From contig MHGF01000020.1 of assembly GCA_001805445.1 (NCBI GenBank), forward strand, positions 1 through 32,294: a DNA stretch of 32,294 nucleotides. The letters run 5' to 3'. This document shows, one piece after another, positions 1 through 32,294 of the stretch (its first letter is position 1; every line of letters begins with the position of its first letter). Under the pieces are notes generated by a model. The model saw only the letters and a list, made by a program, of their open reading frames with translations, did no database searches and was not told the DNA's origin. The translations under genes were made by a program, and so were the position numbers. Source of the DNA: Omnitrophica WOR_2 bacterium GWF2_43_52 (lineage in GTDB: Bacteria > Omnitrophota > Gorgyraeia > Gygaellales > UBA12090).

Positions 1-498
1 GAGTTTTTGAATAAACTTACTGATAATGATCCTGAGGGATTTTATCCGTCTGTCAATGCCGAGAGAATGGTAGTGAAAATGGATGATGGCAGGCAGGTAA
101 ACTTACATACAGCCTTAGCCGCGGTTGATACGGGTTTTAAATTGAAAGACGCGCAGCGCAGGCGCATCAGGGCTTTTGATATGCTTCTTAAATCAGCGGG
201 ATTGGCCCCGGATTGGAGAAAGAGATTTAGAGCTATGTCATATAGCGCGTTAATAAGTTTTGACTGGGGGCTGCTTATCGAATCAGACAAAGAGTATTTT
301 CTTGAGCTTTTAGTCGGGCTTAAGCATGCGCATGATTCCCTGGGACAGATTGTAAAGGATCCTATAGTAAAATCATTACAGCGCTGGATAGAGCAGTATT
401 GCATGAAGAAAAACAAAAATATAAAACAGCAGCCTGACAAAAGCGAAATAAGGCGAGCCATTACGCTGTTAGAAAATGAAATTCGCCTGAGCGTGGAA
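1..498 (+). other. Helical segment of unknown function, upstream of first SSPI junction
   Basis: Codons 1-166 are charged and mainly helical, for example the region with SAGLAPDWRKRFRAM and the following ISFDWGLLIESDKEYF. I recognise no catalytic motif. The segment ends in a short Lys/Gln-rich stretch followed by a helix (SEIRRAITLLENEIRL) and the first GSSPID junction at 499-516. It is probably the end of a domain that begins before the window. Confidence 0.5.
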
Positions 499-3400
499 GG
501 CTCAAGCCCCATAGATGCGCAACTGCTTACTGCGGCAACGGGGTATTATGAGAGAGGCTCTGAATTTAAGCAAGCGGGCGCGTTGGACGCGGCGCTCGTT
601 GAGTTTGAAAAATGCAGGCAGGCCTTAAAGGACTATCCTACGGCAAAGATGTATATAAGCGCCCTTGACCAGATAGCTACGCTGCAATCAGAACTATATC
701 AGTTTGATAAAGCCATTGCTACCATTAAAGAAGCAATAACGCATATACAAAAAGTAAATAGTCCGGATGCCGCGTTGGGATGGGACAGCAATTACCGTGT
801 TATAAGAGATTTCATTGCCGCGCAGCTGTATATTTATTTGGCAGGTTTTCATTATAACGCCGGACAAACTGGCAAAGAAGAAGCAAAGGGAATCCATGAG
901 GCGCTCGCCGCACTTCAGACTGTGGAGAAGATTTACAAGAAAACCTTTCAGTATACTCTCGATATGGGGACTGAGGAGCAAAAGAAGCCTTTGAAAGAGG
1001 TGTATGCCCGCCGCCTGACACTCCTTGGCTGCATCAGGAGATATGAAGGAGATAACGTTAAGGCAAAAGAGAGCTTTGAAAAAGCTCTGAAGTATAACGA
1101 TAAGAATACGACAGCCCGTATGGGACTTGTTATGTGCCTCATGGACGCGGGCACTGAAGAAAATTTAAAAGCAGCCAAGGAGAAGACGCAGGAGTTGGCA
1201 AAACTGATTGAAAAAGAAGGATTTTACGCCTATTCCGTTTCGCGTTATTTAGTTGAGGCAAGGATAGCCAGGGTAGATGAAAAGCTCGATGAAGCGATAG
1301 AGTTGCTTGCTCTGGGAATTACCTATAGCGATGAAAATAAGATGCCCCCGCATTTTAAGCTTGAACTGCTCGTAGAATACGGGGAATGCGGTGTGGCGTT
1401 AGGAAGGCATATTGAAGCAATGGATAATTTTAGGCATAGTTTAGAAATCGTAGGATTGGGCCAGCGGCGCGTGCCAGCATCAGGATGGCCGCGACTAATG
1501 GCAAGGCGCGGCCTGAATGGTTTTATCGGGGCATTGCAGGCAGTAACACAAGAAAGCTTGCGAAATCTTCCCGAAGGAGCAATACCCGCGCTTGATGGGC
1601 ATTTGCAATGGATGATGAGCTGGATAGGGATAGAAGAAATGAAAGTCCATATTCCTGGAAATATCGCTCAAACGGCGAAAGATACGGCTGATAAAGTTTC
1701 GAAGCTAAGGAATTTATTTGAGCAGATTAAAAATGCAAAGATACAAGGGCTCTCGGAAGATGAGTTAACGCAGGGTATCAATGGATATATCAAAACAATG
1801 ACAGAGCTGCTTACGAATGAATATATAGGCACGTTAAGCCAATATGAACTTAAGGCGCTCAAGATGAATATAGGAAAGATAGGAGCGGTTTTAAAGGAAA
1901 ATAGTTTTAACGAAGAATGTGATAAATTCAATAGCCTTATGAACGCGATTGCCGATGCGGATTTTAGAAAAGGGATAGAAAACGCGAGGGCAAAGCAAGG
2001 GCTTAGAGAGGTATTATTACCTTTAGTGGAATTTTATAAACTCCTGGAAGAAACTGGAATTCCTACACGCAAGGGGCGCAGTGACAGAGAGGAAGATTTG
2101 GCAGGCTATGTGCGCTATATGCTTTCCATAAATACCGCGGAGGAATTGAGTGATTTTATTCATAAGGCAGTATCTGAAGGGATACAGATTGACTCAATGA
2201 GGTTTGAAAATGGCGCCCGGCAGCTTTATATAGTGCCGTTTATGCCTAAAGAAGAGAAAAATGGATTACAAATTATTTTGGTTGCGGTAGATGCCCTAAA
2301 AAAACCTGTGGGCATTGCCGTATTGGACCGTAAGGGTTTTATTCAGGCTGTATTGCTTCTGCTTTCAGATGTGCCTTTAATGGCAGAGGTGGAAAGGCTA
2401 AAGAATGTTATTTTTAAATGCATCTCTACGCTGAATCAGGCAGTCTTATGGGCTGATAGGAATAAACCGGATGCCGAGAAAACAAAGATACGGTATAAGC
2501 TTGCATATTATGAAAACAAGAAGAATGATCAGAGGCAGATTATTGTTATTGCCAGCCAAAAACACGGGGGTAAGGTATCAGAGGTATGGCGCTGGCATGG
2601 GATAGATGGCGGGGTGCTCCAGAGGACAGGTAAAGAGATAATTACTCCCAGCGATACTGAGAGCTATTATGAGACTACGTGGTTTTATTATCATTATGAA
2701 ACAGGCAGGCCGGCTGAGATTGAAAGCTGCCGCGATTACGCGGGGGTAAAAACCAAAGAGGAAGAACTGTATGAATTTTATGGCTGGCTTAATAGCGCCG
2801 GTATAACTACTTTTCCTGAAGAGTTCATCCAAAACAGGATAATCAGTTATCTTAGTAAAAAGTTTGCGCAGAAGCCAAAAGCTGAAGAAACCATTGCCCA
2901 CATAGCTTCTCAGGTAATGAGTGAAGGCCTTGAGGTTTACCGTAAAAGCGATACGATGAGGTATTATTTGCTCGGTATGGCGCCGGTGGTAAAGGATAAT
3001 TCGCAAGCCATAAAGCTAAAATGGGACCTTGTCGTGGCAACGCGCGATAAGAGCGGAAATATCCAAGGCCCGGCAATTATTGGGCGGATACCATTGCTTC
3101 AGACAGTATTGTTTCTTTTGTCAGGCGCAAGCAAGATGGAGCAGGTTGAACAGGTATCCAAGATAGTGTTTGGGTTGCTTCACGCGGTTAACGAAGGGAT
3201 AGCTACCTACAACAAAACGCGCGAGGGCCAGAAAACCATTCATTATGCCCTTGCCTATTATCAAGAGCACACTCAACCTCGTTACATTATCCTCGTCTGC
3301 AATGAGTATAGCCTGAATGGCGATGCGCCTGTATTCATAGGGCAGAAATTGCGCTGGATTGAATTTGATAAAGGATACCGCAAGGAAATGGATGATAGAA

Positions 3401-27400: not shown

Positions 27401-30400
27401 AAGGCGCAAAATATTTTCTGCTCATAGATGTGAGAGCTCATCAAGCCTATCGCTATACCATTGCCGGTAGGTGGGTTAAGTTAGAGGATGATTTTTCGCT
27501 TGAAAAATTCCTTGAGGCTCAGGAAGGCCAGTTGATTACGTCTGTATTCAGGCTTTCTATTGAAAAACAAAGAGAAGGAGGCTCCAAGGCGGTTATTGTC
27601 AGTTTTCCCTCTGGCCCAAGCAGCCCACGTTATAGCAGCTCGCCTATAGATGAACAGGCGCAGCGGCTAAAAGAAGGCGTAAGAACAGTTGATGATTCTG
27701 AGAAAAAGAAAGAATTCAGGCTTAAGGAAGTTGCCTGCTATGGCCGGATACTGGCGCATCCCAAGGCCTCCACTGTAGAATTTCCGAAAGAATTGTTACC
27801 GGCGGTGCGCGGCGCCTACAGGGATGGCGGCATATTTAAAGAAGAGTCATTCCCGACCGTAGAGGAGGAGCTTTCTTTGCCTCGGGATGCACTTATGCAT
27901 TTAGAAGATGTTACGGAGATTATCGCTATTTCCCGCAGCGCGCCAAAAAATAATATAAGCTCTGTCATAACAAAAGAAATATCAGAATGGGAAAATAGGA
28001 TACTCATTGTTTTTAAAGGAAAAAGATATGAGGCAAGCAGGAGCATCCTAAGACATATAATAAATAAACATACTAAAAAAGAATTGAAGGCGATAGAGCA
28101 GAAATTCACTATGATTGCTAACGCTTTATCTGCTATTCCGAAAAGATTATTGGTGCAAAATGAAAAGCAAAGAGCGGTAGTAATGGTTAGCCTGATAGGG
28201 GCATTGGATAGTGTAAGTGAAAAAAATACCTTAGGGCGCTTCCCCAGCTTAAAAAAGATGATTTTACCGTCAAAGGCACTGAATGCGATTTTCGCTTACT
28301 TCTTAGAGAAAGACATTGCCCTGCTGCGCAAGGGGCCTATTGCCTGGGAGGATTTCGCGGAATTTAGGCAAAAAGAAAAACTTAAGGTATTGAGGCAGCT
28401 ATTCCCCCGCGGCTTTAATGGCTATGCGAGAAAACACGGTATCAAGACTACTCCTTTCGAGGGTTTTCATTATCGTTTCCGGAAGATTTTGACAAAATCC
28501 GTGTATGGCATGGTTTACCGCTCAATGGTAGAAAAAAACAGCCGTATAAAACCCGATAGCCATCGCTATGGAGAAGTAAGCGATATCATCTTAGAGCGGC
28601 TCAACCATCGCGGCCTGAATACGCAAGCCCCATCAAGCCCATTATTAGAGGTGATACGAGAAGGCAGCGGCAAACAGCTTTCTTTGCCTTCAATGTTACG
28701 CGATAGCGATATGTATGATGTAATCTTATTCAGTGTGCAAGAATATCTGGGAGAGCAGGCCGTAGTGAGGGAAAAATATATTGCCGAGTATGGTATGTCG
28801 CAAGGCGTTGAAGAAAATGTTTCTTCAGCAATTGAGAAAGAAGATGTGAACAAGGAATTTGACAGCGCGCTCGTGAAATTGAAAGAAGGGAATCTGGATG
28901 AGCAATTAAAGGCTTTTGAGGCCCTATGTGGGCTAATAACAAAATGCAGATCGTTAGCGGCCAGGGTAAATGTTCAAAAAATCATTAACCTGATAAGCGA
29001 AGAAAATGTTGGAGTAATGTGTTATGCCTTGCAAATTATCCCAATCTTCTTTCAGGAAAATGAGCTGTTGGTAAGAAGGAAAAGGTATTTGAGGAAAGTT
29101 TTTAATAAGATAAAGCCAAAGTTAGCACACGCTAACCCTTGGATCAGGGTGGAAGCCGTGGATGCGGCTGTTTCATTGATATCTTTAGACGCGTCTCAAT
29201 TTGCCAAAGCGGATATCCACAATGTTTTCGAAATAGCGCAAGAGATGCTTTATTTCAAAAGTAAGCTTGAAATACCGTATGCCCTGAAGGCGCTGGCGAT
29301 ACTTATGCGGATAGAGCCTTCGTTTGTCAGCGATGATTTAATAGAAAAGGTTATCCGTGTAATTAAAGAGGATTTTGGCATATCTGTTTTCAACGAGGAA
29401 ATGCTTGTTAAGGCATTGGTATTAGTGTTGAGGCAGCCTTATTTTAACAGCCTTTGCCCGGCTTCGCAGGGGCTGCTATTTTTCTTTATCTACGAGAAAC
29501 TGTCGCAGGGAGCAGAACTCTTGGAGGTGAATATTGCTCATTTAGTAAGAGTCTTACGATGGCAGGATTCGCTCAATAGTGACTATGGCTTATTCCACGC
29601 GCATCTGTATCATGTGGTAAAGGAAGAGGATGAGTACAAAAAGAATGAGTTATCCTATATTTTTCAGCTTCTTGCCTTTATAGGCAGCAGCCACGAAAAC
29701 AAGGCGCACGCGCACCTGCCCCAGGCTATGGTTTTAGAATTATTATCTTTATCAGGGAATTGGGTGGCGCTTCTTAGATTGTTCGCGCAGTTTCATAGCG
29801 TGGGGATACTCTCTCCTGTGCGAGATGATTATCAAAGCGTTTCGTATCATTTGTCTACCCAGGATAAGGAAATATTAGATACTCCCGCCTTTCTTATCTT
29901 AAGCAGTATATTCCTTGATTGTATTAAATTCTCGTCATTAGAAAGTAACGCTTATATTGCTCCCGAAACCTACGCCACGATCCCTCTGCGGTATCTTAAC
30001 AGCGGTAAAAAAATGCTGGCGCAGGATACGCAAATGCTGTATCAGAAAGATATTTTCAGGAAAGCGCTTCTTTGGTTTGTCTTTAGCCGGAATGATAAAA
30101 GATCAATCCCTGTTCAGAATAAGATTATGGATATGTTCTCAAATTGGTTGATTGCGATAGGATTGCCGTCGTCTTTTGATGATTTTGCGCGGCTGCAAAA
30201 TATAAGAGATAAGACAATAAAAGACAAACTTTTAAGTGATCTCTTGCATAAAATAGCAGAAAGAATAATCCTTGAAGCGGCGAAGGAACGGCTTAGGCAA
30301 TTAGAAGGGTATTCTCCAGAAAGCTATGAGGAAGAAACAATAAGGCAGGCGCGAATACAAGAAGTAAAACAGTATTTTGATAAGAATGCGCCAAATTATA

Positions 30401-32294
30401 AAGCATTGGCTAAGGTCTTGGATGGTTATCGCTTGAGAAGAGCAAGTATGATAGTGTCGGGGGCAGCAGGGTATTCATTTGGTGAATTAAACAACCAGCA
30501 ACACAGAAAGATCCTTTATGTCTTACAAAATATGCCGCTTAGCAATAAGGTAAGAGAGTTAAGCAATGCGTTAGATGAGATTCTTGACGAAATCAAGGTG
30601 CTTTTGTATCCTGAGCCTTTAATGAGAAAAATCATTGGAATTATCGCTAATCCTGATACCCGTTTAGCGGAAATCCCTGAGATTATTGATAACAAGCTTA
30701 TCTATACTCTTTATTTTGAAGGTAATACCAGAGAGTATAAAGAAGTAGCGCATCTTATCGAGAACATTGGCGGGGAAAAGGCAAGAAAGGCATTAGAGAA
30801 GTTCAGGAAACCAGAAGGAAGTTCAGCAATAGTAAGGGCAGTTTCTGTAGAAATTAAGGATACGTCAAAGAAACTATTGAGTGCAGGTTATCAAATTATT
30901 GTGCCGGAAATATTAAAAGGATTGTCGGTTCAACTAAGAGATTGGTGGGGAAATCCTGTTTCCTTTTATATCGCAGGCAGCCAGGCACGGTATATGCTTT
31001 TTAAGGTAAATACCGGGCTTGTGTATAGTGAAGAGCTTGATATTGTGTTAGAGGAGCACGTTGATAGTAAATATATTCGGAATGAGATTCATATATTTCT
31101 TAGGCGTAATGGTTTCATAGGAAAGATTGATTTTATTAGTATGAAAGCCTTTGAAATGGTACAAGGTACTTCTTTTAGTATACAGAGAATATTGGTTAAG
31201 TTTTACAAGGGTGAGATATCATTGGCTGTTTTTGATGAGCAGGATTATCAGGATTTGGTAAGCGGCACATTACGATATTTGGGTAAGGCGATGGATTGGA
31301 GGCCTGCAGGAAGAGGCCTTGAGCTTATGCAATATTTTAGTCTCCTGCCTGACGAAAGGACACAGTATTTATTAGACAATAGCTTGGTGAGCAGAGCATC
31401 ACATTACCGAGAAATTATAGAGTCTATAAGAGCCATAAGAGCTAAAATATCTAAACCCAGTAGAGGCAATGATAGTTTGGCGGTGACTTCCTCATCTATA
31501 GAGTATGGGGTTTTAGATATTAATAGAGAAAAACTTGAGGATATGGTCATTCAGGGATATACGAGATTATCAGGGCTCCCTTGCGCAAAAGCCCGGGAAA
31601 GTATACGTAAGCTTTGTAATATTATTAATGAAAACAGAGAAAAAGAATCTATTGTTAGGCAGATAGAGTTATTCGAGAGCCCTCAGTATAAGGTATTTCA
31701 AATCCAGGAGCCTTTTGGGGTGAATGTCTATGTGGTAATTTACCGGAATAAGAATGGCAAAACACAGGCAATTTTAGTTGATACCGGCCCCGGGTTTTAT
31801 TTTGAAAAACTCAAAGTGCAGCTAAGAGATGAATTGGGTGTCGCACTTAATGATATTGAGTCTGTTATTATTACTCATGGGCATCCTGATCACATAGGGG
31901 CGCTTGGCTATTTTCTTCGGGAAAATCCCTCGATTAAGGTTGTTGCCCATCCGCAATGGCCAAAGGTTGCCGCGAATATCTTCCCCAATGACACAGCGAA
32001 TAAAAAGTATTACGATACTTTGACACGCTATTATCGTTTGATTATGGAAAACGCGTATTTAGAGAATATACGCGCTGTGCCACTTAGCTTTAGGCATGAG
32101 CAAAGCTATAAGATAGGAAGTATGGTTTTTAGGAAAATGATGGATATCCCTATATTCAACAGTTCACTTATAATCCTGACTTCTCCTGCCTGCGGCCCTC
32201 CGGCGCGCCACAGTATAGATTCTCTCTCTATCTACGAACCTCAAAACCGCATTTTATTTATCGGTGATACCTACATTGAACGCGCCTTCCTTAA
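1..32294 (+). CDS. Giant multidomain protein, interior fragment (at least 10,764 codons, open at both ends)
   Basis: Reading from base 1 in frame +1, no stop codon is met up to the last base; the last complete codon ends at 32,292. No ATG-to-stop frame occurs in frame +1, while short ones exist in other frames, which is what an unbroken coding frame gives. Start, ribosome binding site and stop are all outside the window. The protein contains TPR and other helical arrays, one membrane hairpin, and embedded folds in this order: nucleotidyltransferase-like, methyltransferase, DUF1611-like NTPase, ATP-grasp pieces, HAD, PHP, methyltransferase, HD, PanB, second nucleotidyltransferase-like, metallo-beta-lactamase. 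Junctions often carry Ser-Ser-Pro-Ile/Val/Leu. Giant ORFs of this kind are known from Omnitrophota; that assignment is inference. It does not look like a polyketide or peptide synthetase: no ketosynthase, adenylation or carrier motifs were seen. The function of the whole is unknown. Confidence 0.95.
502..1455 (+). other. TPR array 1
   Basis: Codons 168-485 form repeated helix pairs of about 34-40 residues with TPR spacing, such as ALDAALVEFEKCRQAL, YQFDKAIATIKEAITH, NVKAKESFEKALKYN, KLDEAIELLALGITY and HIEAMDNFRHSLEIV. The small-residue/A-x-x-x-F/Y pattern is typical of the family. TPR solenoids bind peptides or act as spacers; no catalytic role is expected. The array follows directly on the GSSPID motif, as TPR array 5 (25342 onward) does on SSSPID. 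Confidence 0.8.
1456..2136 (+). other. Helical spacer of unknown function
   Basis: Codons 486-712 continue the TPR region with less regular helices (FEQIKNAKIQGLSEDEL, ALKMNIGKIGAVLKENSF). No enzymatic motif is seen. The segment ends at the Arg/Lys/Asp/Glu-rich stretch KGRSDREEDLAGYVRYML, which leads into the first LLSG domain. It could be diverged TPR repeats. Confidence 0.4.
2137..2745 (+). other. Unnamed LLSG domain, copy A
   Basis: Codons 713-915 form an alpha/beta domain that I cannot assign to a named family. In order: an N-terminal helix ending in VSEGIQI, strands QLYIVPFM and LQIILVAVDALKKPVGI, the core helix pair FIQAVLLLLSDVPLMAEVE, then strands IRYKLAYYE and QIIVIASQK followed by an EVWRW strand and a Tyr/Trp-rich end (ETTWFYYHY). 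Copy B, next to it, matches in the same order, and two further full copies occur near 24.0 and 27.1 kb. No obvious catalytic His, Cys or Asp motif is shared, so a binding or structural role is more likely than catalysis. This is inference. Confidence 0.55.
2878..3522 (+). other. Unnamed LLSG domain, copy B
   Basis: Codons 960-1174 repeat the order seen in copy A: helix ending MSEGLEVY, strands MRYYLLGMAPV and KWDLVVATRDKSGNIQG, core helix LLQTVLFLLSGASKMEQVEQ, then HYALAYYQEH and RYIILVCNEYS, and a final Tyr-rich strand (TTGFYYNF) and CVFLSF. Equivalent pairs are VSEG/MSEG, AVLLLLSD/TVLFLLSG and RYKLAYYE/HYALAYYQ. This is a tandem duplication at protein level that has diverged strongly at DNA level. 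Function unknown. Confidence 0.6.
3601..4218 (+). other. Helical lead plus half LLSG domain, copy C (N-terminal half only)
   Basis: After an Arg/Lys/Pro linker (KRSPKPRTKAVTQQ), codons from about 1220 form helices, and then a half copy of the LLSG domain: LGIGVDSLEENTLTYIVETI, the loop AQGNMVFF, and the strand pair ELITVTRDEKGAMYIGGEL. The last matches DLVVATRDKSGNIQGPAIIG of copy B. The core LLSG helix pair is missing. The chain goes instead into the Ala/Ser/Pro linker GASPSPSAQEANSPL. A similar half copy lies just before the SSSPID junction at 25342. Confidence 0.45.
4219..4281 (+). other. Ala/Ser/Pro linker with NSPL motif
   Basis: The linker AGASPSPSAQEANSPLKQDG is low-complexity and probably unstructured. 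It carries a degenerate junction motif (NSPL at 4255-4266). It separates the half LLSG domain from the membrane hairpin. Confidence 0.6.
4282..4458 (+). other. Predicted transmembrane hairpin (two helices)
   Basis: Codons about 1428-1453 (LLSTGMAFICASLLSSRIVA, continuing GALYG) and 1471-1486 (GWIILAITGAWLLFKF) are two hydrophobic stretches split by a short polar loop (QGAPETREV). The second is followed by IRGR, a positive stop-transfer-like end. Two passes would place both flanks on the same side of the membrane; by the positive-inside rule the IRGR side would be cytoplasmic. This is the only clear membrane segment I see in the window, so it could anchor the giant protein or mark the end of one processed product. 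The first helix contains Ser, Arg and Cys and is the less certain of the two. Confidence 0.7.
4480..5850 (+). other. TPR/helical array 2
   Basis: Codons about 1494-1950 hold helix pairs of TPR type: EESIAIFESVLKNIG, TEEALGALKKVLKLKG, NPEEAIVYLNNAAHGI and KTDEAKKDFASALSLIL, with a less regular middle (WAWKEFKYLSKETRKG). The GERGLVAQRDYLDSRKLW stretch at the end leads into the nucleotidyltransferase-like domain. An AGGAGG at 5361 is inside the coding frame and has no in-frame start at usual spacing. Confidence 0.65.
5860..6640 (+). other. Nucleotidyltransferase-like domain 1
   Basis: Codons about 1954-2213. The diagnostic part is IVRPYGSITYDL, with Gly-Ser at 6076-6081, followed about 16 residues later by LSDIDIDVYAS, with Asp at 6133, 6139 and 6145. 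This is the GS-x(n)-D-x-D pattern of the polymerase-beta nucleotidyltransferase superfamily, in which the acidic residues bind metal and nucleotide. A further stretch (NTYCSIPISIGVLSFREL) could supply the third acidic strand, but I cannot place it. The all-helical tail with LAQLAFLRGRRHTGARLL resembles the helical regions that follow such cores. Substrate unknown. The domain could be tRNA- or protein-modifying, aminoglycoside-type, or a non-catalytic relic. Confidence 0.5.
6641..7194 (+). other. Helical segment interrupted by a Gly/Trp/Tyr-rich insert of palindromic DNA
   Basis: A helical segment (KRNLLDKFYKASSAVRKSA) gives way at about codon 2285 to a stretch unlike the rest of the protein: Cys, Pro, Arg, Trp and Gly rich (LWQGIKQSDCLPCPIRK, then RWKELYRVWSLFYLSVAGG, then IAGGEYLPLSDGAWLVY). 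This is the translation of the nested palindromic repeat at 6921-7115. It is unlikely to be a functional domain in its own right. Normal composition resumes at VSDVPAAAYGHKHTQ. Confidence 0.6.
6921..7115 (+). repeat. In-frame nested palindromic element (two forward, two inverted units)
   Basis: Two direct units, 6921-6948 and 6967-6994, agree at 24 of 28 bases. Their core GCCCCNTTNGAAAG reappears inverted twice downstream, at 7055-7067 and about 7093-7106. The inner pair is perfect over 13 bases: CCCCGTTGGAAAG at 6979-6991 and CTTTCCAACGGGG at 7055-7067. The outer pair (GCCCCATTAGAAAG against the reverse of CTTTCTGACGGGGC) agrees at 12 of 14. The inverted arm also carries direct repeats: GCTGGTGGGGA at 7030 and 7072, and CGTGGCTGGT at 7026 and 7106. 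The whole can fold into a long hairpin. It is read through in frame without a stop. This resembles mobile palindromic elements found inside genes, such as Rickettsia palindromic elements, by structure only. Confidence 0.75.
7195..7789 (+). other. Helical segment ahead of methyltransferase 1
   Basis: Begins with a degenerate junction motif (SSSAL, 7195-7209) and contains helices such as DDVMAEKLNHIFVNAE, RLDYMREIIAEKDL and LRLKEEMEKIVRSVY. The last part (IFYISYISKDLQAQEG, then NFYHAVYPGGIIPL) may be the N-terminal cap of the methyltransferase domain that follows. No catalytic motif of its own is seen. Confidence 0.4.
7790..8310 (+). other. Class I SAM-dependent methyltransferase domain 1
   Basis: Codons about 2597-2770 show the Rossmann-like methyltransferase order. 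Motif I is ILSVGIGNASWEPSLA (glycines at 7882 and 7888), followed by the second-strand acidic residue in QAIGVDLSMERLAEARKK. Then come the DAHFLPFKSNSFDLVVFSE block, a post-I/motif IV pattern like the ubiE/Methyltransf_11 family, and an EAFRLLRVKGVVIITTYE strand. The tail IIEALENIGFSDVIQKELVG matches the usual C-terminal hairpin. Motif I has GxGxxS where family members usually have GCGTG, so SAM binding may be altered. Substrate cannot be inferred. A second methyltransferase domain lies at 15790-16395. Confidence 0.8.
8341..8790 (+). other. Helical spacer ending in SSPV junction
   Basis: Codons about 2781-2930 are almost fully helical (YYVREIIDARNFDENKAH, AKKIIERDFKAIAEAAKAI, DINEVLNILRKRIKKDG). 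The segment is followed by TSSPVS at 8788-8805. It is probably a structural spacer or small helical bundle. Confidence 0.45.
8791..9720 (+). other. Unrecognised globular domain between SSPV and ASPV junctions
   Basis: Codons 2931-3240 form an alpha/beta domain that I cannot name. Visible blocks are ETSTFIQVNGSKIELACRQA, QKISIRLGSGVPQITFN, DDLAIYTVYRGDIFDFYKTL, VIETPGHLLKIGWIDMLLNS, SHIDVCLFHAKAAEWLW and NITANGAGPVWAWDVGAL. The His/Asp-rich strand HIDVCLFHAK and the Gly-rich NGAGPVWAW could be functional sites, but the basis is weak. It is bounded by SSPV (8791-8802) and ASPV (9721-9732), so it looks like one complete bead. It could also be an N-terminal part of the NTPase domain that follows. 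Confidence 0.4.
9740..10830 (+). other. DUF1611-like P-loop NTPase domain
   Basis: Codons about 3247-3610. The N-terminal part is beta-rich (DLIAIKVTSDKGAYDIFEIE, GQILIGALGARYAQKG). The Walker A motif GTSMDVGKT at 10219-10245 follows strand PIILAV, and is followed by TAARIIGGLSDKGYKVAAVK, FTGTSRMKDPATF, LDFTYAGIPSDTS and DVDIIVAELSDGVID. This series, with VGKT, a KxTGT segment and LDFTDAG-like strand, is how I know the dethiobiotin-synthetase-like DUF1611 NTPases. The expected activity is nucleotide hydrolysis or ATP-dependent ligation on an unknown substrate. It is followed at once by ATP-grasp sequence, and such a fusion may imply a two-step ATP-dependent reaction. The key Lys and Thr of the P-loop are intact. 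Confidence 0.7.
10831..11130 (+). other. C-terminal ATP-grasp piece (E-x-N-x-R motif)
   Basis: Codons about 3611-3710. FIGPDVLFSEGGPIVLELN followed by TRPR carries the typical ATP-grasp end: Asp at 10993, Glu at 11029, Asn at 11035 and Arg at 11041, which coordinate Mg-ATP. The beginning of an ATP-grasp fold (lid Lys and glycine loop) is not visible between the NTPase and this piece; instead, the segment KFSPSLGGIVKTKPALLINQ leads in. The first half may have been lost, or the next domain may supply it. See the unusual order described in the findings. Confidence 0.6.
11131..11976 (+). other. ATP-grasp domain, RimK/GshB-like N-terminal and central parts
   Basis: Codons about 3711-3992. A pre-grasp segment KKVGILINDSENYPHEIFEI is followed by FDAIFRFATDLPSI and EIPIMNSLYADLMGGANKVE, comparable to the P-x-x-N-x-x-x-A-x-x-x-x-x-NK pattern of RimK and glutathione synthetases. 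IKIQRPLTFIANTIDEVM matches the PxT segment. QAVIKASDRNMGIGIYPI supplies the ATP-binding lysine (11521) and glycine loop. FDFRYTLARTNQGITVIT corresponds to the central Arg/Lys strand. The E-x-N ligands expected next are absent: the chain reads TNWWGKMGTIDWDRAK and helices instead. It is followed by VSSPVEKG (11977 on). Likely ancestral role: carboxylate-amine ligase; present activity uncertain. Confidence 0.6.
11992..12828 (+). other. Helical spacer ahead of the HAD domain
   Basis: Codons about 3998-4276 begin after VSSPVEKGAYP. The first 40 residues (LKAMPFCKGSNLIEENE) look like a small folded region; the rest is helical: SLLKENKAPPEALYEILA, YYQEILAFYQKFIPAFNQ, ALQWLRFGLISMYFEDIAFL. There is no motif I can assign. 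It possibly belongs to the HAD module as an N-terminal helical extension. Confidence 0.4.
12829..13600 (+). other. HAD-superfamily phosphatase domain (Cof/sucrose-phosphatase-like)
   Basis: Codons about 4277-4533. Motif I is VCAFDKDYTLADN, with Asp at 12847 (nucleophile) and 12853 (acid/base). Motif II Thr is in AVITGAGIERTD (12955). A cap region of about 100 residues follows (RPLVYETLSLRQFKIDME, TVRTPGVSDRKRIRIA). Motif III Lys is in VNISKADKADGLRDLA (13348 or 13357). Motif IV is AVGDSQIDLPMLNVAAESG with Asp at 13450 and 13462, then GLAIFVGN. The layout with a large C2-type cap between motifs II and III is that of Cof-like hydrolases, which act on sugar phosphates or nucleotides. All catalytic residues are present, so it may be active. 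Substrate unknown. Confidence 0.8.
13651..13716 (+). repeat. Interspersed 66-bp repeat, copy 1 (read in frame)
   Basis: Matches 16447-16512 at about 48 of 66 bases, in the same reading phase. It encodes NDSLPSTTAGSPVIKNEPVP followed by FF. On the minus strand it reads AAAAAGGGGACAGGTTCATT. From general knowledge this resembles GGGGACAGGTTC-type boxes of interspersed repeats often seen with REP-associated tyrosine transposases; I cannot verify this here. It lies exactly at the junction between the HAD domain and the next helical spacer. Confidence 0.65.
13726..14666 (+). other. Basic linker and helical segment before the PHP domain
   Basis: The segment starts with an ASSPS junction and a strongly basic linker (KKNEKRRREIFVYGKGKKK). 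Codons about 4610-4888 are helical (HEISFLMRTHALNMAGDVL, AQDWINKAEELYEILLKDE, NKEYDAIQAINIIVNMVN). Part of it, with DQDPAVKRQALLTIIREIFS and DGYELLRLEAFERLLAFVL, looks HEAT-like. No enzymatic motif. Confidence 0.45.
14667..15720 (+). other. PHP-domain metal-dependent phosphoesterase
   Basis: Codons about 4889-5240. The order of metal ligands is that of the PHP family: HTH in EIDLHTHSVYSDG (14686, 14692); Asp-His in GLTDHDDYF (14788, 14791); Glu in IPGMEITTI (14914); His in ENYIFHLL (14947); His-Pro-His in IIIPHPHALNG (15373, 15379); Asp-x-His in VPGSDAHYTPMG (15613, 15619). PHP proteins hydrolyse phosphoesters (histidinol phosphate, nucleotide 3',5'-bisphosphates, polymerase-associated phosphatases). 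All expected ligands are present, so an active trinuclear-metal site is plausible. A helical insertion of about 120 residues lies between the IFHLL His and the HPH motif and is longer than in small PHP enzymes. Substrate not deducible. Confidence 0.85.
15721..15789 (+). other. Linker with degenerate SSSL junction
   Basis: A short Gly/Asn/Ser linker joins the PHP domain to methyltransferase 2. FTSSSLEEEKG carries SSSL at 15778-15789, a degenerate form of the SSP[IVL] motif. Confidence 0.45.
15790..16395 (+). other. Class I SAM-dependent methyltransferase domain 2
   Basis: Codons about 5264-5465. Motif I is textbook: RLLEIGCGTGNLLKYLESRG at 15958-16017, then the acidic residue of strand 2 in IRGIDNDANTVAVARQK, and EVFDVIISSFLLQ for motif IV. 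ALLREGGVHIHAAAH is the typical post-motif strand. The tail KSQIYLYYHLVVGTKH resembles the C-terminal strands of Methyltransf_25/11 domains. Unlike methyltransferase 1, its motif I is fully canonical. Substrate unknown. The placement after a PHP phosphoesterase is not a known functional pair. Confidence 0.85.
16406..16428 (+). promoter_or_regulatory. Possible internal Shine-Dalgarno with in-frame ATG
   Basis: AGGAGG at 16406-16411 lies upstream of an in-frame ATG at 16426-16428. The gap of 14 bases is longer than the usual 5-9. It falls just after the methyltransferase 2 domain, at a junction. It might allow internal initiation or be a remnant of a former separate gene, but a chance match is at least as likely. 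Confidence 0.15.
16447..16512 (+). repeat. Interspersed 66-bp repeat, copy 2, with perfect 8-bp hairpin
   Basis: About 73% identical to 13651-13716 and in the same codon phase. It contains CTGCCTGC (16455-16462) and GCAGGCAG (16471-16478) as a perfect inverted repeat with an 8-base loop. Its end AATGAACCCGTCCCCTTTT gives the same GGGGACGGGTTC-type box on the minus strand as copy 1. It encodes NSSLPASDAGSPLEENEPVP followed by FS. It is located between methyltransferase 2 and the next domain. Confidence 0.7.
16513..17880 (+). other. Unrecognised globular segment
   Basis: Codons about 5505-5960 do not match a family I know. The first part has strands and short helices (DRDIRGIEIKKAFRLLPG, MVLNPLEMEEGICDSS, FMLMPVKKGKEHAIPF). 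The middle is helical (KLMVKLIRQEFKQKYNK). The second part is beta-rich with Gly turns: GADISIGSGGASEALNKAF, KFRGILVATEYLAQGEAIHY, GVLVIGLIRDDPYVGGGIKG, GIVTLNLLWLGPGRD. The repeated Gly-rich turns suggest a beta sandwich or an alpha/beta binding domain, possibly two domains with a boundary near 17340. No catalytic motif can be named. Confidence 0.35.
17881..19380 (+). other. TPR/coiled helical array 3
   Basis: Codons about 5961-6460 begin with clear TPRs (PLYTLAFAYAEFGLWDKAR, KAIKQVLTLSEKYETG, NPDKANQAAINLFKQANEI) and continue with long charged helices (RMLRRIYLDHMYRIIKEAEA, MRQAWFREEKEASLAQKLKA, KLLAMGHPEGAKGEYIKALG). It ends in a basic stretch and the double junction MSSPYP plus GSSPIN (19393-19440). 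Confidence 0.6.
19393..19440 (+). other. Double SSP junction
   Basis: Two motifs lie eleven codons apart: SSPY at 19396-19407 and SSPI at 19426-19437, joined by a Pro/Ser/Lys/Asn linker (PSKNT). The first uses AGC-TCG serines, the second TCA-AGC. Such pairs also occur at 27619/27637 and 22192/22219. Confidence 0.65.
19441..20370 (+). other. Unrecognised domain ending in SSAV junction
   Basis: Codons about 6481-6790. It starts with VAISEESFYKYTFSPVMD and a DITSVARNLARIKQELSRQG helix, followed by strands (KWLAVKVKIEHHTEGLFEY), then helices (EDKILDLLTHRLDYHTPTF). The last part (LQELLFGLLKQKDKNPTVR, then INAVIVILRLVLIEEECQEA) looks like an armadillo/HEAT-like helical repeat. I recognise no active site. 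It ends in GSSAVN (20356-20373), a degenerate junction. Confidence 0.35.
20440..21340 (+). other. HD-domain phosphohydrolase
   Basis: Codons about 6814-7113, beginning after QSSPVNE. Metal ligands appear in HD-superfamily order: His in EHGLLHGLETV (20581, 20593), the His-Asp pair in ASGLLHDADTRNRP (20698-20703), His-His in THHSDSAKLA (20728-20733), His in IYAHRGIS (20824), and Asp in KIIHDADTLLAVENF (20896, 20902). The helical tail with ITKRLAHLKGCIKEGF resembles the C-terminal helices of small HD phosphohydrolases (HDIG/YedJ-like). Expected reaction: metal-dependent hydrolysis of a nucleotide or other phosphoester. The active site looks complete. It sits directly before PanB, separated by about 30 residues; no pathway link is known. 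Confidence 0.8.
21361..22190 (+). other. panB: Ketopantoate hydroxymethyltransferase (PanB) domain, complete
   Basis: Codons about 7121-7397 align over essentially the full length of bacterial PanB (about 264 residues). KMIMLTAYDAKTARALEEAG and ILVGDSVAMVVHGFDTT open the TIM barrel, then IVIGDMTWLSYETEEEAVEN, GATVVKVEGG, AVMGHLGYTPQTGKLRVYGK, FAIVLEMVYSEVAKALTEM and PTVGIGAGKDTRGQVLVIND. Metal ligands are Asp at 21490, Asp at 21613 and Glu at 21703; the catalytic Glu is at 21892. PanB adds a hydroxymethyl group from methylenetetrahydrofolate to 2-oxoisovalerate, the first committed step to pantothenate and CoA. PanB is normally a free cytosolic decamer, so finding it in mid-protein is strange. 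The flanks are VSSAIA (21358) and LSSPVEKT (22189), so it could be released as a unit of normal size. Confidence 0.92.
22192..22230 (+). other. Double SSPV/CSPV junction after PanB
   Basis: LSSPVEKTSCSPVF contains SSPV at 22192-22203 and SPV at 22219-22227. It marks the exact end of the PanB homology. The VSSPVEK form is shared with the junction at 11977, after the ATP-grasp domain. Confidence 0.7.
22231..23460 (+). other. TPR array 4
   Basis: Codons about 7411-7820. Clear TPR units: EAIKAYKIILKALKSQPTS, YFYLGKYTIAIRMAEKAL, YYILGNSAYYDGDFPLAKK, YIKEALAIDRSYIFALFL, LLLEEGNKEEARKILDGL, RDSQEALKVLSEGIEAIG and VRQAREDFEKAIELYLG. Gly/Ala/Tyr positions fit the TPR consensus well, better than in arrays 2 and 3. 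Probable scaffold or peptide-binding solenoid. Confidence 0.85.
23461..24000 (+). other. Helical segment and Pro/Lys/Gln-rich linker
   Basis: Helices (LPDLLKKIIELIDALKKAAG, EELPRIKDAFKELAQGE) are followed by a low-complexity linker of about 55 residues rich in Lys, Gln, Glu and Pro (KQPDAKQEASVRLGKQAKEE, then PQIVQPEAVAATQKMPEMS). It is probably unstructured. It leads into the next LLSG module. Confidence 0.45.
24001..24762 (+). other. Unnamed LLSG domain, copy D
   Basis: Codons about 8001-8254. The first part (IVEGYWSLLAIVEQPNQVC, GKLYRFKNVRMMIEGNLPRM) has a His-rich loop KNRHGELHSHYWMREGGG. The second follows the LLSG pattern: strand DEIFIIKQNPFLLIPYYAEK, core helices YALAKIISGISFSQAQNVIK, then strands KCVILFNPKEKDIVIVNSNG and LVVGRIFIEE and end VDVTDIIYES. 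The core IISGIS corresponds to LLSGAS of copy B and LLSGVS of copy E. The His-rich loop is absent from the other copies, so it could be an added metal site or a separate small domain. Confidence 0.45.
24763..25020 (+). other. Low-complexity Lys/Glu linker
   Basis: About 86 residues with alternating Lys/Arg and Glu/Gln runs (LKRRHKKQKSEGTQEEVE, NNNIERKKKEEIREES), plus a Pro/Thr/Ala part (RHEEAPTAVTKREVPAQEG). Probably disordered. It is the most charged stretch in the window. Confidence 0.65.
25021..25341 (+). other. Half LLSG domain, copy C' (N-terminal half only)
   Basis: Codons about 8341-8447. FMRHLGLQAGDMIQDILVHI followed by RNELAAGNRVFYGS parallels LGIGVDSLEENTLTYIVETI and AQGNMVFF of copy C near 3.9-4.0 kb, both just before an SP[I/L] junction. 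It continues with YAIAEGALYQHDPTVEDFPE and EVAVEFYFQQEKW. The LLSG core helix is not seen. Assignment as homologous is by eye and moderate. Confidence 0.35.
25342..26640 (+). other. TPR array 5
   Basis: Begins at SSPIDAL (25342-25362). Codons about 8448-8880 hold TPR helix pairs: DITKAISSFQQALKIAE, NSLGLLLLQEGQAEKALKHL, LGLAYFGLKNTSEAGKYAR, LARAKGDFTLAMGFIDESI, LYEMGICLLQSKDAMNAEEF, YKEKNAWDELIALYEKEL. Later repeats are less regular. The start after an SSPIDA motif repeats the arrangement at 499-516, where TPR array 1 begins. Confidence 0.8.
26641..27060 (+). other. Coiled-coil-like helical segment
   Basis: Long charged helices with heptad-like spacing (GRLKRIREELENLSTFFEEN, LNENSRKVKEIEGVLASLYL) followed by a basic patch (AIRRVWRRQGVNLIIRN) and the variant motif AGSSEPIADT at 26971-27000. 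No enzymatic features. Confidence 0.45.
27061..27612 (+). other. Unnamed LLSG domain, copy E
   Basis: Codons about 9021-9204. It opens with KLGLGEEELLDTIECVGRRG, then strands KKYYLYPVTLQTGEQNIIIV and GIDGAGHVEYFD, core helix AAEFLKTILSLLSGVSLNEV, and strands KYFLLIDVRAHQAYRYTIAG, RWVKLEDD, LITSVFRLSIEK and KAVIVSFPSG. It matches copy B in order and in the YYL, LLSG-x-S and final V-x-x-SF blocks. It ends directly at the double junction SSPRYSSSPID. This is the most compact full copy and the best query for searches. Confidence 0.55.
27613..27654 (+). other. Double SSP junction
   Basis: GPSSPRYSSSPIDEQ holds SSPR (27619-27630) and SSPI (27637-27648). It separates LLSG copy E from the next unknown domain. 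Confidence 0.7.
27655..28632 (+). other. Unrecognised domain between SSPI and SSPL junctions
   Basis: Codons about 9219-9544. The first part includes KEVACYGRILAHPKASTVEF, LLPAVRGAYRDGGIFKEES, VTEIIAISRSAPKNNISS and ILIVFKGKRYEASRSILRHI; the second is helical and basic (AFAYFLEKDIALLRKGPI, PRGFNGYARKHGIKTTPFEG, YGMVYRSMVEKNSRIKPDSH). I recognise no family. The conserved-looking basic end could bind nucleic acid or be structural; this is a guess. Confidence 0.35.
28633..30819 (+). other. HEAT-like helical solenoid
   Basis: Codons about 9545-10273, after APSSPLLEVI. It starts with a short region (EVIREGSGKQLSLPSMLRD), then repeated helix pairs of 35-40 residues: LKAFEALCGLITKCRSLAAR, NPWIRVEAVDAAVSLISLD, IPYALKALAILMRIEPSFV, EMLVKALVLVLRQPYFNSL. 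The DAAVSLISLD and ALKALAILM helices recall HEAT/armadillo repeats. The second half (about 29.6-30.8 kb) is more irregular (YQKDIFRKALLWFVFSRNDK, EVKQYFDKNAPNYKALAK). No catalytic motif seen. Confidence 0.5.
30820..31485 (+). other. Nucleotidyltransferase-like domain 2 (degenerate)
   Basis: Codons about 10274-10495, beginning at SSAIVRAVSVE. VSFYIAGSQARYMLFK has the Gly-Ser and Arg positions of nucleotidyltransferase heads (compare GGAVRD in poly(A)/CCA polymerases). VYSEELDIVLEEHV stands where D-x-D is expected, but only one Asp is present, followed by a Glu. GKIDFISMKAFEMVQG could give the third acidic strand. The helical tail AGRGLELMQYFSLLPDE is consistent. With the acidic pair altered, it may be inactive. 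It is less certain than domain 1 at 5860-6640. Confidence 0.35.
31486..32294 (+). other. Metallo-beta-lactamase-fold hydrolase domain, cut by window end
   Basis: After TSSSIEYG and a helical lead (REKLEDMVIQGYTRLSGL), the fold starts at FGVNVYVVIYRNKNGKTQA, with ILVDTGPGFYFEKLK as the typical V-D-T-G strand. The H-x-H-x-D-H motif is complete in VIITHGHPDHIGALGYF (His 31876, 31882, 31891; Asp 31888). VVAHPQWP follows. CGPPARHSIDSLSIYE probably supplies the next ligand His (32209), replacing the usual PGHTPGS, and RILFIGDTYIE the bridging Asp (32266). The last His-containing strand is beyond the window. Family members hydrolyse glutathione thioesters, phosphodiesters or lactones; this one cannot be specified. 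Confidence 0.85.

What the first reader, a model, noticed from the sequence alone, without database searches (positions are those of the whole stretch)
1..32294. A single uninterrupted reading frame fills the entire 32.3-kb window
Frame +1 has no stop from the first to the last base, about 10,764 codons, and both ends are outside. At random, a stop would be expected about every 21 codons, and ordinary bacterial genes end after some 300. Recognisable folds (PanB, PHP, HD, HAD, metallo-beta-lactamase, two methyltransferases) all lie in this one frame, so it is truly coding. Giant ORFs of this scale are known mainly from Omnitrophota. The embedded set of soluble metabolic enzymes is unlike typical giant adhesins or polyketide synthases.
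Basis: partly seen in the sequence, partly recalled or inferred. Interest (0 to 1): 0.95.

Follow-up and report, generated by a model that had tools for sequence, protein, structure and literature searches.

The report
Giant gene of swappable enzyme modules
This whole 32-kb contig is an inner stretch of one giant gene of an uncultured, likely Omnitrophota, bacterium, strung together from enzyme-like and helper modules (among them a diverged second copy of a vitamin-pathway enzyme) whose relatives sit in a different order in a related genome, with breaks falling at short serine-proline linkers more often than chance; the product would be an enormous chain that is likely cut into separate working proteins.

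Summary
Frame +1 has 0 stops in 10,764 codons with even codon periodicity. The window is the complete contig C20 of a 40-contig genome, so the gene runs off both ends. Seven more contigs of this genome are open end to end, as are contigs of related genomes, up to 75,147 bp.

Giant Omnitrophota ORFs are published. The anatomy looks new: a non-repetitive string of TPR and enzyme modules (PanB, HD, PHP, HAD, methyltransferases, metallo-beta-lactamase fold) with [S/A/G]-S-P-[L/V/I/M] linkers. Related modules lie in relatives' giant frames in another order, and homology breaks at linkers: 174 of 288 edges versus 51 expected overall, 7 of 23 versus 2.1 on the window side alone. PanB here, and SecA, NAPRTase or FolD in sister giants, are extra copies beside ordinary genes; PanB keeps its active-site residues. 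The 3' end of a sister giant frame sits at one conserved chromosomal place in three genomes.

Best reading: a module-swapping giant gene, probably yielding a processed polyprotein. Shuffling is well supported; processing is inferred.

The parts
1..32292 (+). single open frame, 10,764 codons, open at both contig ends; internal part of a giant gene
1009..1449 (+). TPR repeats (aa 337-483)
   Evidence: TPR_8 3.3e-6, TPR_19 4.5e-6
5392..5478 (+). TPR repeat (aa 1798-1826), just below curated cut-off
   Evidence: TPR_1 2.4e-6, 27.6 bits against 27.8
5875..6846 (+). module without Pfam name (aa 1959-2282), 30% identical to a module of G003:C38
7870..8139 (+). methyltransferase domain 1 (aa 2624-2713), within a block related to G003:C33 (aa 2446-2770)
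   Evidence: Methyltransf_11 7.4e-14
10198..10329 (+). weak P-loop/CobQ-like match (aa 3400-3443), below curated cut-off
   Evidence: CbiA 0.0016, DUF1611 0.0017
11518..11808 (+). ATP-grasp YheCD-like match (aa 3840-3936), just below curated cut-off
   Evidence: 7.6e-6
13258..13503 (+). HAD-type hydrolase domain (aa 4420-4501)
   Evidence: Hydrolase_3 1.4e-4; block aa 4256-4563 to G003:C33
14680..14991 (+). PHP domain (aa 4894-4997)
   Evidence: 9.2e-6; block aa 4810-5207
15964..16245 (+). methyltransferase domain 2 (aa 5322-5415); module 70% identical to G003:C33 and 53% to G006:C20
16474..19281 (+). FBPase GlpX-like module (aa 5492-6427), 45% identical to G003:C33; relatives found only in long open frames except one weak hit; GlpX match of the window itself is below cut-off
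19405..20553 (+). module without Pfam name (aa 6469-6851), 43% identical to G003:C33; order swapped relative to the GlpX-like module
20593..20913 (+). HD domain (aa 6865-6971)
   Evidence: 1.5e-4
21391..22152 (+). ketopantoate hydroxymethyltransferase (PanB) module (aa 7131-7384), active-site residues kept
22327..22827 (+). TPR repeats (aa 7443-7609)
   Evidence: TPR_12 5.4e-9
25444..26295 (+). TPR repeats (aa 8482-8765)
   Evidence: TPR_12 1.1e-7, TPR_7 2.6e-7
29530..30810 (+). module without Pfam name (aa 9844-10270), 27% identical to G003:C38
31711..32097 (+). metallo-beta-lactamase-fold domain; its module is cut by the contig end; block aa 10484-10760 is 63% identical to G003:C33
502..513 (+). 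linker SSPI
8791..8802 (+). linker SSPV
9721..9732 (+). linker ASPV
11980..11991 (+). linker SSPV
13678..13689 (+). linker GSPV
16474..16485 (+). linker GSPL
19426..19437 (+). linker SSPI
20440..20451 (+). linker SSPV
22192..22203 (+). linker SSPV
25342..25353 (+). linker SSPI
27637..27648 (+). linker SSPI
28633..28644 (+). linker SSPL

Best explanation
The window is an inner piece of one giant gene made of enzyme-like and TPR modules with short Ser-Ser-Pro-type linkers; the modules have likely been exchanged by recombination at those linkers, and the translated chain is likely cut near them to release second copies of metabolic enzymes and scaffolds. Shown: the open frame, its coding character, the linkers, the different module order in G003, an excess of homology breakpoints at linkers, the separate free-standing PanB gene, and the kept PanB active-site motifs. 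Inferred: that recombination at linkers caused the reshuffling (about 0.85), that the window belongs to the same gene as the 3'-end contigs C7-C17-C2 (about 0.5), that the product stays mostly in the cytoplasm (about 0.6), and that it is proteolytically processed rather than used as one intact chain (about 0.4).
For: One frame: 0 stops in 10,764 codons, even periodicity. No internal translation starts at linkers: Shine-Dalgarno-like sites at 55 of 160 linkers versus 53.8 at random places; SD plus in-frame start 22 versus 27.8. Linkers: 12 in the window versus mean 1.07, maximum 6 in 200 shuffles; 0.163 per 1000 aa in 397 other ORFs of this genome versus 1.11 here and 2.33 in G003:C33; 0 of 12 fall inside the 15 Pfam segments listed for the window; median spacing over 13 giant pieces 317 aa. 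Shuffling: 75 homology blocks; 174 of 288 edges within 40 aa of a linker versus mean 50.6, maximum 95 in 1000 shifts; 29 linkers inside blocks versus mean 102.9, minimum 58. Window side alone, 12 blocks: 7 of 23 edges versus mean 2.14, reached in 26 of 2000 shifts; both sides of these blocks 16 of 46 versus 6.2, reached in 0 of 2000; the 63 blocks without the window 158 of 242 versus 44.3. Extra copies: PanB, SecA and NAPRTase in this genome, FolD in G003, occur free-standing as well as in giant frames. PanB keeps the VGDS, GDM, KxEGG, GHxG and VLE motifs, a confident model (243 of 342 residues at pLDDT 90 or more; the linker stretch, model residues 309-321, under 50) and best PDB match 1m3u. 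dN/dS 0.19-0.34 for four window modules against G003. A subtilase (Peptidase_S8 8.2e-9) with H, N and S motifs and a plausible D, read by eye from recalled motifs, lies in the 3'-end contigs C17-C2. Three of five solved PanB sequences come from single ten-chain entries, which fits a released subunit better than a module fixed in a chain (inference).
Against: No peptide, transcript or cleavage data. The subtilase contigs are not physically linked to the window, and the C17/C2 join has 185 of 190 matching bases, so it is provisional. On the window side 16 of 23 block edges are not near a linker. The SecA of C7 is split by an insertion that holds two hydrophobic stretches, so some giant copies may not be enzymes. 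Three of the sister modules tested have dN/dS 0.48-0.71, so selection on them is weak. Linker DNA shows copying (AGCCCGCTG in 38 of 94 SPL linkers versus 1.3 expected), so the motif may be a recombination scar rather than a cleavage site; in the window this core is found at 0 of 12 linkers. Low pLDDT at the linker may reflect missing alignment depth there.
Confidence: 0.55

Rival explanations
1. The product stays one intact giant protein, for example a cytoplasmic or surface multi-domain scaffold, with linkers as mere flexible joints; module swapping diversifies it, as proposed in print for other Omnitrophota giant proteins in attachment or predation.
For: Published passages describe giant Omnitrophota ORFs as surface or adhesion proteins, with peptides of the V. 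archaeovorus giant ORF 3-fold up in attached cells (PMC10066038). TPR and HEAT modules suit scaffolds. The linker after PanB is modelled with low confidence, as a flexible joint would be.
Against: No adhesin domain, no internal repeats, no TM segment passing my filter in the window. Ser/Thr/Asn content is unlike the Ser/Thr-rich frames of this genome. PanB normally works as a decamer (recalled).
Confidence: 0.35
2. The giant frame is an evolutionary sink: modules are captured and swapped but most have little function, kept open only because stops would truncate the chain.
For: Long branches of the giant PanB copies (0.69 and 1.93), dN/dS up to 0.71 in sister modules, an insertion in the SecA of C7.
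Against: dN/dS 0.19-0.34 in four window modules; active-site motifs of PanB kept in both giant copies; frames stay open over thousands to 25,048 codons in several genomes.
Confidence: 0.1
3. Assembly or binning artefact: separate genes fused by assembly errors or lost stops.
For: The window is a contig without flanks; some sister contigs of this genome end in near-repeats, for example C6 and C16.
Against: Seven other contigs here and contigs in G003, G013, G039 and G074 are wholly open; codon periodicity is even; G003 modules align over hundreds of residues without a frameshift.
Confidence: 0.02

Closest known systems
Giant ORFs of Omnitrophota (Seymour et al. 2023, PMC10066038; search listing and passages seen)
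   Same: Same phylum, judged by the title of a same-family relative's record; ORF longer than 20 kb; few annotated domains per length; giant ORFs fragmented in draft genomes.
   Different: Passages seen describe transmembrane helices, adhesion domains (discoidin, laminin G, dockerin) and surface roles where anything is annotated. The window shows metabolic-enzyme and TPR modules with linker-bounded shuffling; the words linker, shuffl, polyprotein and SecA were found 0 times in that paper's main text.
Giant genes up to 85,800 aa in PVC lineages (West-Roberts et al. 2023 preprint, seen only as cited in PMC12057145)
   Same: Scale and lineage.
   Different: Interpreted there as surface weapons of predators or cellulosome-like structures, with transmembrane helices and carbohydrate-degradation domains; the Pfam scans of the window list no such domain. 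The preprint itself is not held and was not seen.
Polyketide and non-ribosomal peptide megasynthases (recalled)
   Same: Very long multi-enzyme chains that evolve by module exchange.
   Different: No KS, AT, ACP, condensation or adenylation domain listed; modules are unlike one another and resemble general metabolism.
Polyproteins and multi-enzyme fusions such as the eukaryotic AROM type (recalled)
   Same: Several metabolic enzymes in one frame.
   Different: Far longer, shuffled between species, extra copies beside ordinary genes, recurring SSP linkers.

Membership tests
Omnitrophota giant ORFs | uninterrupted ORF longer than 20 kb | tested here: met
   32,292 nt open
Omnitrophota giant ORFs | host phylum Omnitrophota | tested here: met
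Omnitrophota giant ORFs | multiple transmembrane helices with large extracellular domains | tested here: not met
   0 segments by a strict hydropathy filter; two weaker hydrophobic stretches by eye near aa 1424-1470. In print this is said of most giant ORFs of one class only, so it is not a strict criterion
Omnitrophota giant ORFs | adhesion domains (discoidin, laminin G, dockerin) | tested here: not met
   none listed in Pfam scans of the window; in print reported for some giant ORFs only
Giant repetitive adhesins | internal repeats and Ser/Thr/Asn-rich composition | tested here: not met
   no self-match at E<=1e-4; S 6.2%, T 3.7%, N 4.1% versus S 10.7-12.1% and T 12.0-12.7% in frames C12 and C35
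PKS/NRPS megasynthases | carrier, ketosynthase, condensation or adenylation domains | tested here: not met
   none listed (Pfam, whole window) or 58 (NCBIfam, 8 of 12 window segments)
Polyprotein | one translated chain cut into separate products at defined sites | not testable with these tools
   no proteomics; linkers and a subtilase in sister contigs are only suggestive
Polyprotein | protease encoded in the chain | tested here: inconclusive
   none listed in the window; subtilase in C17-C2, whose link to the window is not shown
PanB (ketopantoate hydroxymethyltransferase) | family model match and active-site residues | tested here: met
   PF02548 2.8e-79; TIGR00222 236.4 bits over cut-off 207.55; NF001452 270 bits, just under its cut-off of 272; motifs kept; which residues are catalytic is recalled

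The most novel reading that the evidence does not exclude
A bacterial cassette polyprotein: one stop-free chromosomal locus that collects extra copies of core enzymes and regulators (coenzyme A, NAD, folate, glycolysis, SecA, two-component parts) as in-frame cassettes, swaps them between lineages at a short Ser-Pro linker, and makes them as a chain of tens of thousands of residues that a built-in subtilase cuts into a second, fast-evolving set of proteins.
Probability: 0.25. Interest if true: 0.93.

Novelty: new variant of a known kind. Interest (0 to 1): 0.74.

Why it matters
Giant bacterial ORFs are known but mostly unexplained. The linkers here cut the giant frame into nameable units and suggest how such genes change: by exchange of whole modules at a recurring linker. 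That makes an open question testable: whether these chains are intact machines or processed polyproteins. Linkers predict fragment boundaries for proteomics, and single modules such as PanB can be assayed. It would also mean that a bacterium keeps a second, changeable set of core enzymes inside giant genes.

Tried and rejected
Many genes that lost their stops, with starts after each linker: rejected, no Shine-Dalgarno or start enrichment at linkers. Linker as a genome-wide DNA repeat: the strict DNA core was found 11 times, in 4 of 40 genomes; the 4 hits in this genome are all in giant frames. First guess of the linker DNA was poor: 7 hits against 1 in the control. Protein search for other giants with the window: 686 candidates, none at E<=0.001. 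Same with the G006 giant frame: 3 distant proteins with SecA domains among 2678 candidates. Recent duplication of the own PanB gene: not supported, the giant copies form a separate, long-branched group with the metagenomic protein P0004 (built with 57 of the 120 listed database hits; the tool warns that long-branch joins may be false). Joining contigs to the window: no end overlap, no match for the missing end of the metallo-beta-lactamase module in the own stretches held. G003 C33 and C38 as neighbours (C33 ends with a below-cut-off FolD match, C38 starts with FolD): no overlap, not claimed. Free mobile element: not supported for the sister 3' end, which sits in conserved gene order in three genomes; untested for the window. 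Weak Pfam matches of the window, below cut-off and dropped from the parts list: FAD_SOX, CA109-like, 4HB_MCP_1, ARM_TT21_N, CNOT1_TTP_bind, ARS2, PEP_mutase; the segment aa 6466-6813 had none. Limits: edges are not independent because some modules recur in several pairs; the 397 ORFs include a few from other frames of giant contigs; the G039 frame holds 287 N and only 9,333 of its 25,048 codons were scanned with Pfam, and parts of C6 and of G003:C38 were not scanned; dN/dS is Nei-Gojobori on 12 chosen pairs, with dS up to 2.6; of 9 orthologue pairs 3 were saturated and 3 have under 45% identity, so may be paralogues.

Full report
WHAT IS THERE. Frame +1 of the window holds no stop in 10,764 codons; the other five frames hold 334 to 1,037. 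Codon-position GC and purine patterns are the same in the ten 3-kb blocks tested (bases 1-30,000), and the chance of no stop with this composition is about 10^-318 to 10^-324. The window is contig C20 of a 2,472,172-base, 40-contig genome of 94% completeness, and C20 is exactly 32,294 bases long. Both gene ends lie outside. Neither contig end overlaps any other contig end by 15 or more exact bases (the right end of C25 is masked and could not be compared).

IT IS NOT ALONE. I looked at both ends of all 40 contigs. Besides C20, seven contigs are open from end to end: C1 (4,163 codons), C5 (2,137), C6 (11,118), C7 (1,915), C16 (8,344), C17 (1,750) and C30 (5,690). Together with C20 this is 45,881 codons, about 5.6% of the assembly. 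C7 joins C17 by 86 exact bases. C17 joins C2 by 190 bases with 185 matches, giving a provisional frame of about 5,839 codons ending in a stop. Relatives show the same: G003:C33 is 55,264 bp and wholly open (18,421 codons), G003:C38 and G006:C20 carry the 3' ends of frames of 8,199 and 6,572 codons, and G039:C111 (75,147 bp, 25,048 codons, 287 N), G013:C155 and G074:C71 are wholly open. The G003 contig matches a public record titled 'Candidatus Omnitrophota bacterium isolate E14_concoct.bin.43' by length and match position.

MODULES. Pfam finds in the window TPR repeats in four regions (one just below cut-off), two methyltransferases, HAD, PHP, HD, PanB and a metallo-beta-lactamase fold over their cut-offs. 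Below cut-off are ATP-grasp YheCD (7.6e-6), a P-loop match (0.0016) and FBPase GlpX (2.7e-4). The GlpX assignment is carried by the G003 counterpart (8.3e-15), which aligns end to end with 45% identity. Much of the window has no named domain. The parts of sister frames that were scanned add NAPRTase, an isochorismatase domain, NAD(P)H-hydrate dehydratase, SecA, response regulators, PGK, MalQ-type glucanotransferase, CoaBC-type domains, CoaE, FolD, PPDK, sigma-70 region 4 and others. The window has no internal duplication at E<=1e-4, so it is not a repetitive adhesin.

LINKERS. A four-residue motif [S/A/G]-S-P-[L/V/I/M] occurs 12 times in the window against a shuffled mean of 1.07 (maximum 6 of 200). 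Density is 0.163 per 1000 aa in 397 other ORFs of this genome, 1.11 here, and up to 3.74 in other giant pieces. The long frames of C16 (1 motif), C34 (1), C24 (1), C12, C32 and C35 (0) do not show it and are a different class. None of the 12 lies inside the 15 Pfam segments listed. Over 160 linkers in 13 giant pieces the median spacing is 317 aa. At DNA level, AGC-CCG-CTG encodes 38 of 94 SPL linkers against 1.3 expected from codon use, but 0 of 12 in the window. So in sister frames the linker DNA itself seems to have been copied, while in the window only the protein motif is kept.

SHUFFLING. BLASTP between nine own giant pieces and six of relatives, plus relatives among themselves, gave 75 blocks. 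Of 288 block edges away from contig ends, 174 lie within 40 aa of a linker, against a mean of 50.6 and maximum of 95 in 1000 shifted controls; 29 linkers lie inside blocks, against a mean of 102.9 and minimum of 58. For the window's own 12 blocks the signal is weaker: 7 of 23 edges on the window side against 2.14 (reached in 26 of 2000 shifts), 16 of 46 on both sides against 6.2 (0 of 2000). The 63 blocks without the window give 158 of 242 against 44.3. Edges are not independent, since some modules recur. Window modules match G003 giants in no common order; for example the GlpX-like module (aa 5493-6426) precedes the module at aa 6469-6851 here and follows it in G003:C33. Three sister modules have dS of 0.10, 0.16 and 0.18, less than any of nine orthologue pairs (0.37 or more), as if exchanged after the genomes parted. 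The window's own modules are older (dS 0.50 to 2.63) with dN/dS 0.19 to 0.34.

A FIXED PLACE. The five genes after the stop of the own 3'-end contig C2 are matched 5 of 5 and in order in G003 and G006 (52 to 87% identity to G003). Between G003 and G006 these five are 95 to 99% identical, and all 14 flanking pairs 77 to 99%, yet the 17 blocks shared by their giant frames are 34.6 to 83.5% identical and in different order. The place stays; the content turns over. Whether the window belongs to this locus or to another giant gene of the genome is not shown.

EXTRA COPIES. The genome has a separate PanB gene (C3, 360 bits) beside the window copy (269 bits). Of 58 genomes searched, own included, 53 have PanB; the only other copy in a giant frame is in G003. 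Among 12 genomes searched, SecA, NAPRTase and FolD likewise occur as ordinary genes plus giant-frame copies: SecA in G000, G003 and G006; NAPRTase in G000 and, in a 2,237-codon frame, G008; FolD in G003 only. The giant copies score lower than the ordinary ones for PanB, SecA and FolD, but not for the NAPRTase of G000 (123.7 against 124.5 bits). The tree puts both giant PanB copies together with one metagenomic protein, apart from 21 ordinary PanB of the order, with a long-branch warning. The residues that I recall as PanB metal and catalytic residues are kept (alignments). The model of the module has 243 of 342 residues at pLDDT 90 or more, while the stretch beginning at the linker (residues 309-321) and residues 1-26 are mostly under 50; it fits E. 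coli PanB 1m3u best (TM 0.91 by target; the species name is recalled). The GlpX-like module was found in 6 of 128 genomes of the order (7 matches, own included, all in frames of 1,559 codons or more) and in 13 of 384 of the phylum (14 matches, 13 in frames of 1,032 codons or more, one weak match in a 419-codon frame).

HOW IT LIKELY WORKS. Shown: one coding frame, linkers between modules, changed order, extra copies, purifying selection. Inferred: recombination at linkers swaps modules; the chain is translated as a whole, since there is no sign of internal starts; and it is then likely cut near linkers. For cutting speak the linker spacing near a usual protein length, the low-confidence linker after PanB, ten-chain PanB crystal entries for three of five solved sequences and a subtilase near the 3' end of the C7-C17-C2 frame, with H, N and S motifs judged by eye. 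Against it stand the absence of any protein data, the unproven link of that frame to the window, and a SecA copy split by an insertion with two hydrophobic stretches. The main rival is an intact giant scaffold.

AGAINST WHAT IS KNOWN. Seymour et al. (PMC10066038; listing and passages seen) report giant ORFs over 20 kb in 77 of 116 Velamenicoccia genomes and in other classes, with transmembrane and adhesion domains where annotated. PMC12057145 (passages seen) cites giant proteins up to 85,800 aa in this superphylum. PMC11573180 (passages seen) lists phyla rich in huge proteins. PMC13153191, on the predator Velamenicoccus, held none of the terms asked. In the listings of searches I saw no description of linker-bounded, shuffled enzyme modules; preprints are not held, so this is not proof of absence. 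I therefore call it a new variant of a known kind.

Noticed in passing
L024 (own contig C7), aa about 603-1279: SecA copy in a giant frame, split by an insertion of about 66 aa that holds two strongly hydrophobic stretches (aa 765-815).
   Followed up: partly
L033/L049 (own contigs C17 and C2): Subtilase-like protease spanning the C17-C2 overlap near the 3' end of a giant frame, with GTS, SAGND and a His motif by eye.
   Followed up: partly
L028/L102 (C12), L103/L072 (C34), L064 (C24), L073 (C35): A second class of long frames, poor in Cys and SSP linkers; C12 and C35 are Ser/Thr-rich, and C24 and C35 begin with signal-peptide-like stretches by eye. They may be surface proteins.
   Followed up: partly
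L007 (own contig C39, 16,299 bp): The two ends of this contig overlap by 39 bases, so it may be a small circular element.
   Followed up: no
L139 (G003:C33): CoaC-type flavoprotein, NUDIX, CoaB-type domain, transglutaminase core, a cytidylyltransferase and CoaE follow one another in one giant frame, as if much of the coenzyme A pathway had been collected.
   Followed up: no
L155-L158 (G039:C111): A 25,048-codon open contig with peptidase C39, peptidase M23, fucose pyrophosphorylase, starch synthase and two-component modules in the 9,333 codons scanned.
   Followed up: partly
L076 (own contig C3:159304-160074): The ordinary PanB of this genome lies in a 744-codon frame, so it may itself be fused to another enzyme.
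   Followed up: no
P0004: A free-standing 279-aa metagenomic PanB groups with the giant-frame PanB copies; it may be a source or an escaped module.
   Followed up: partly
L032 (own contig C16, minus strand): Long HEAT-repeat array (8 stretches) and glycosyltransferase domains in a wholly open contig almost without SSP linkers.
   Followed up: no
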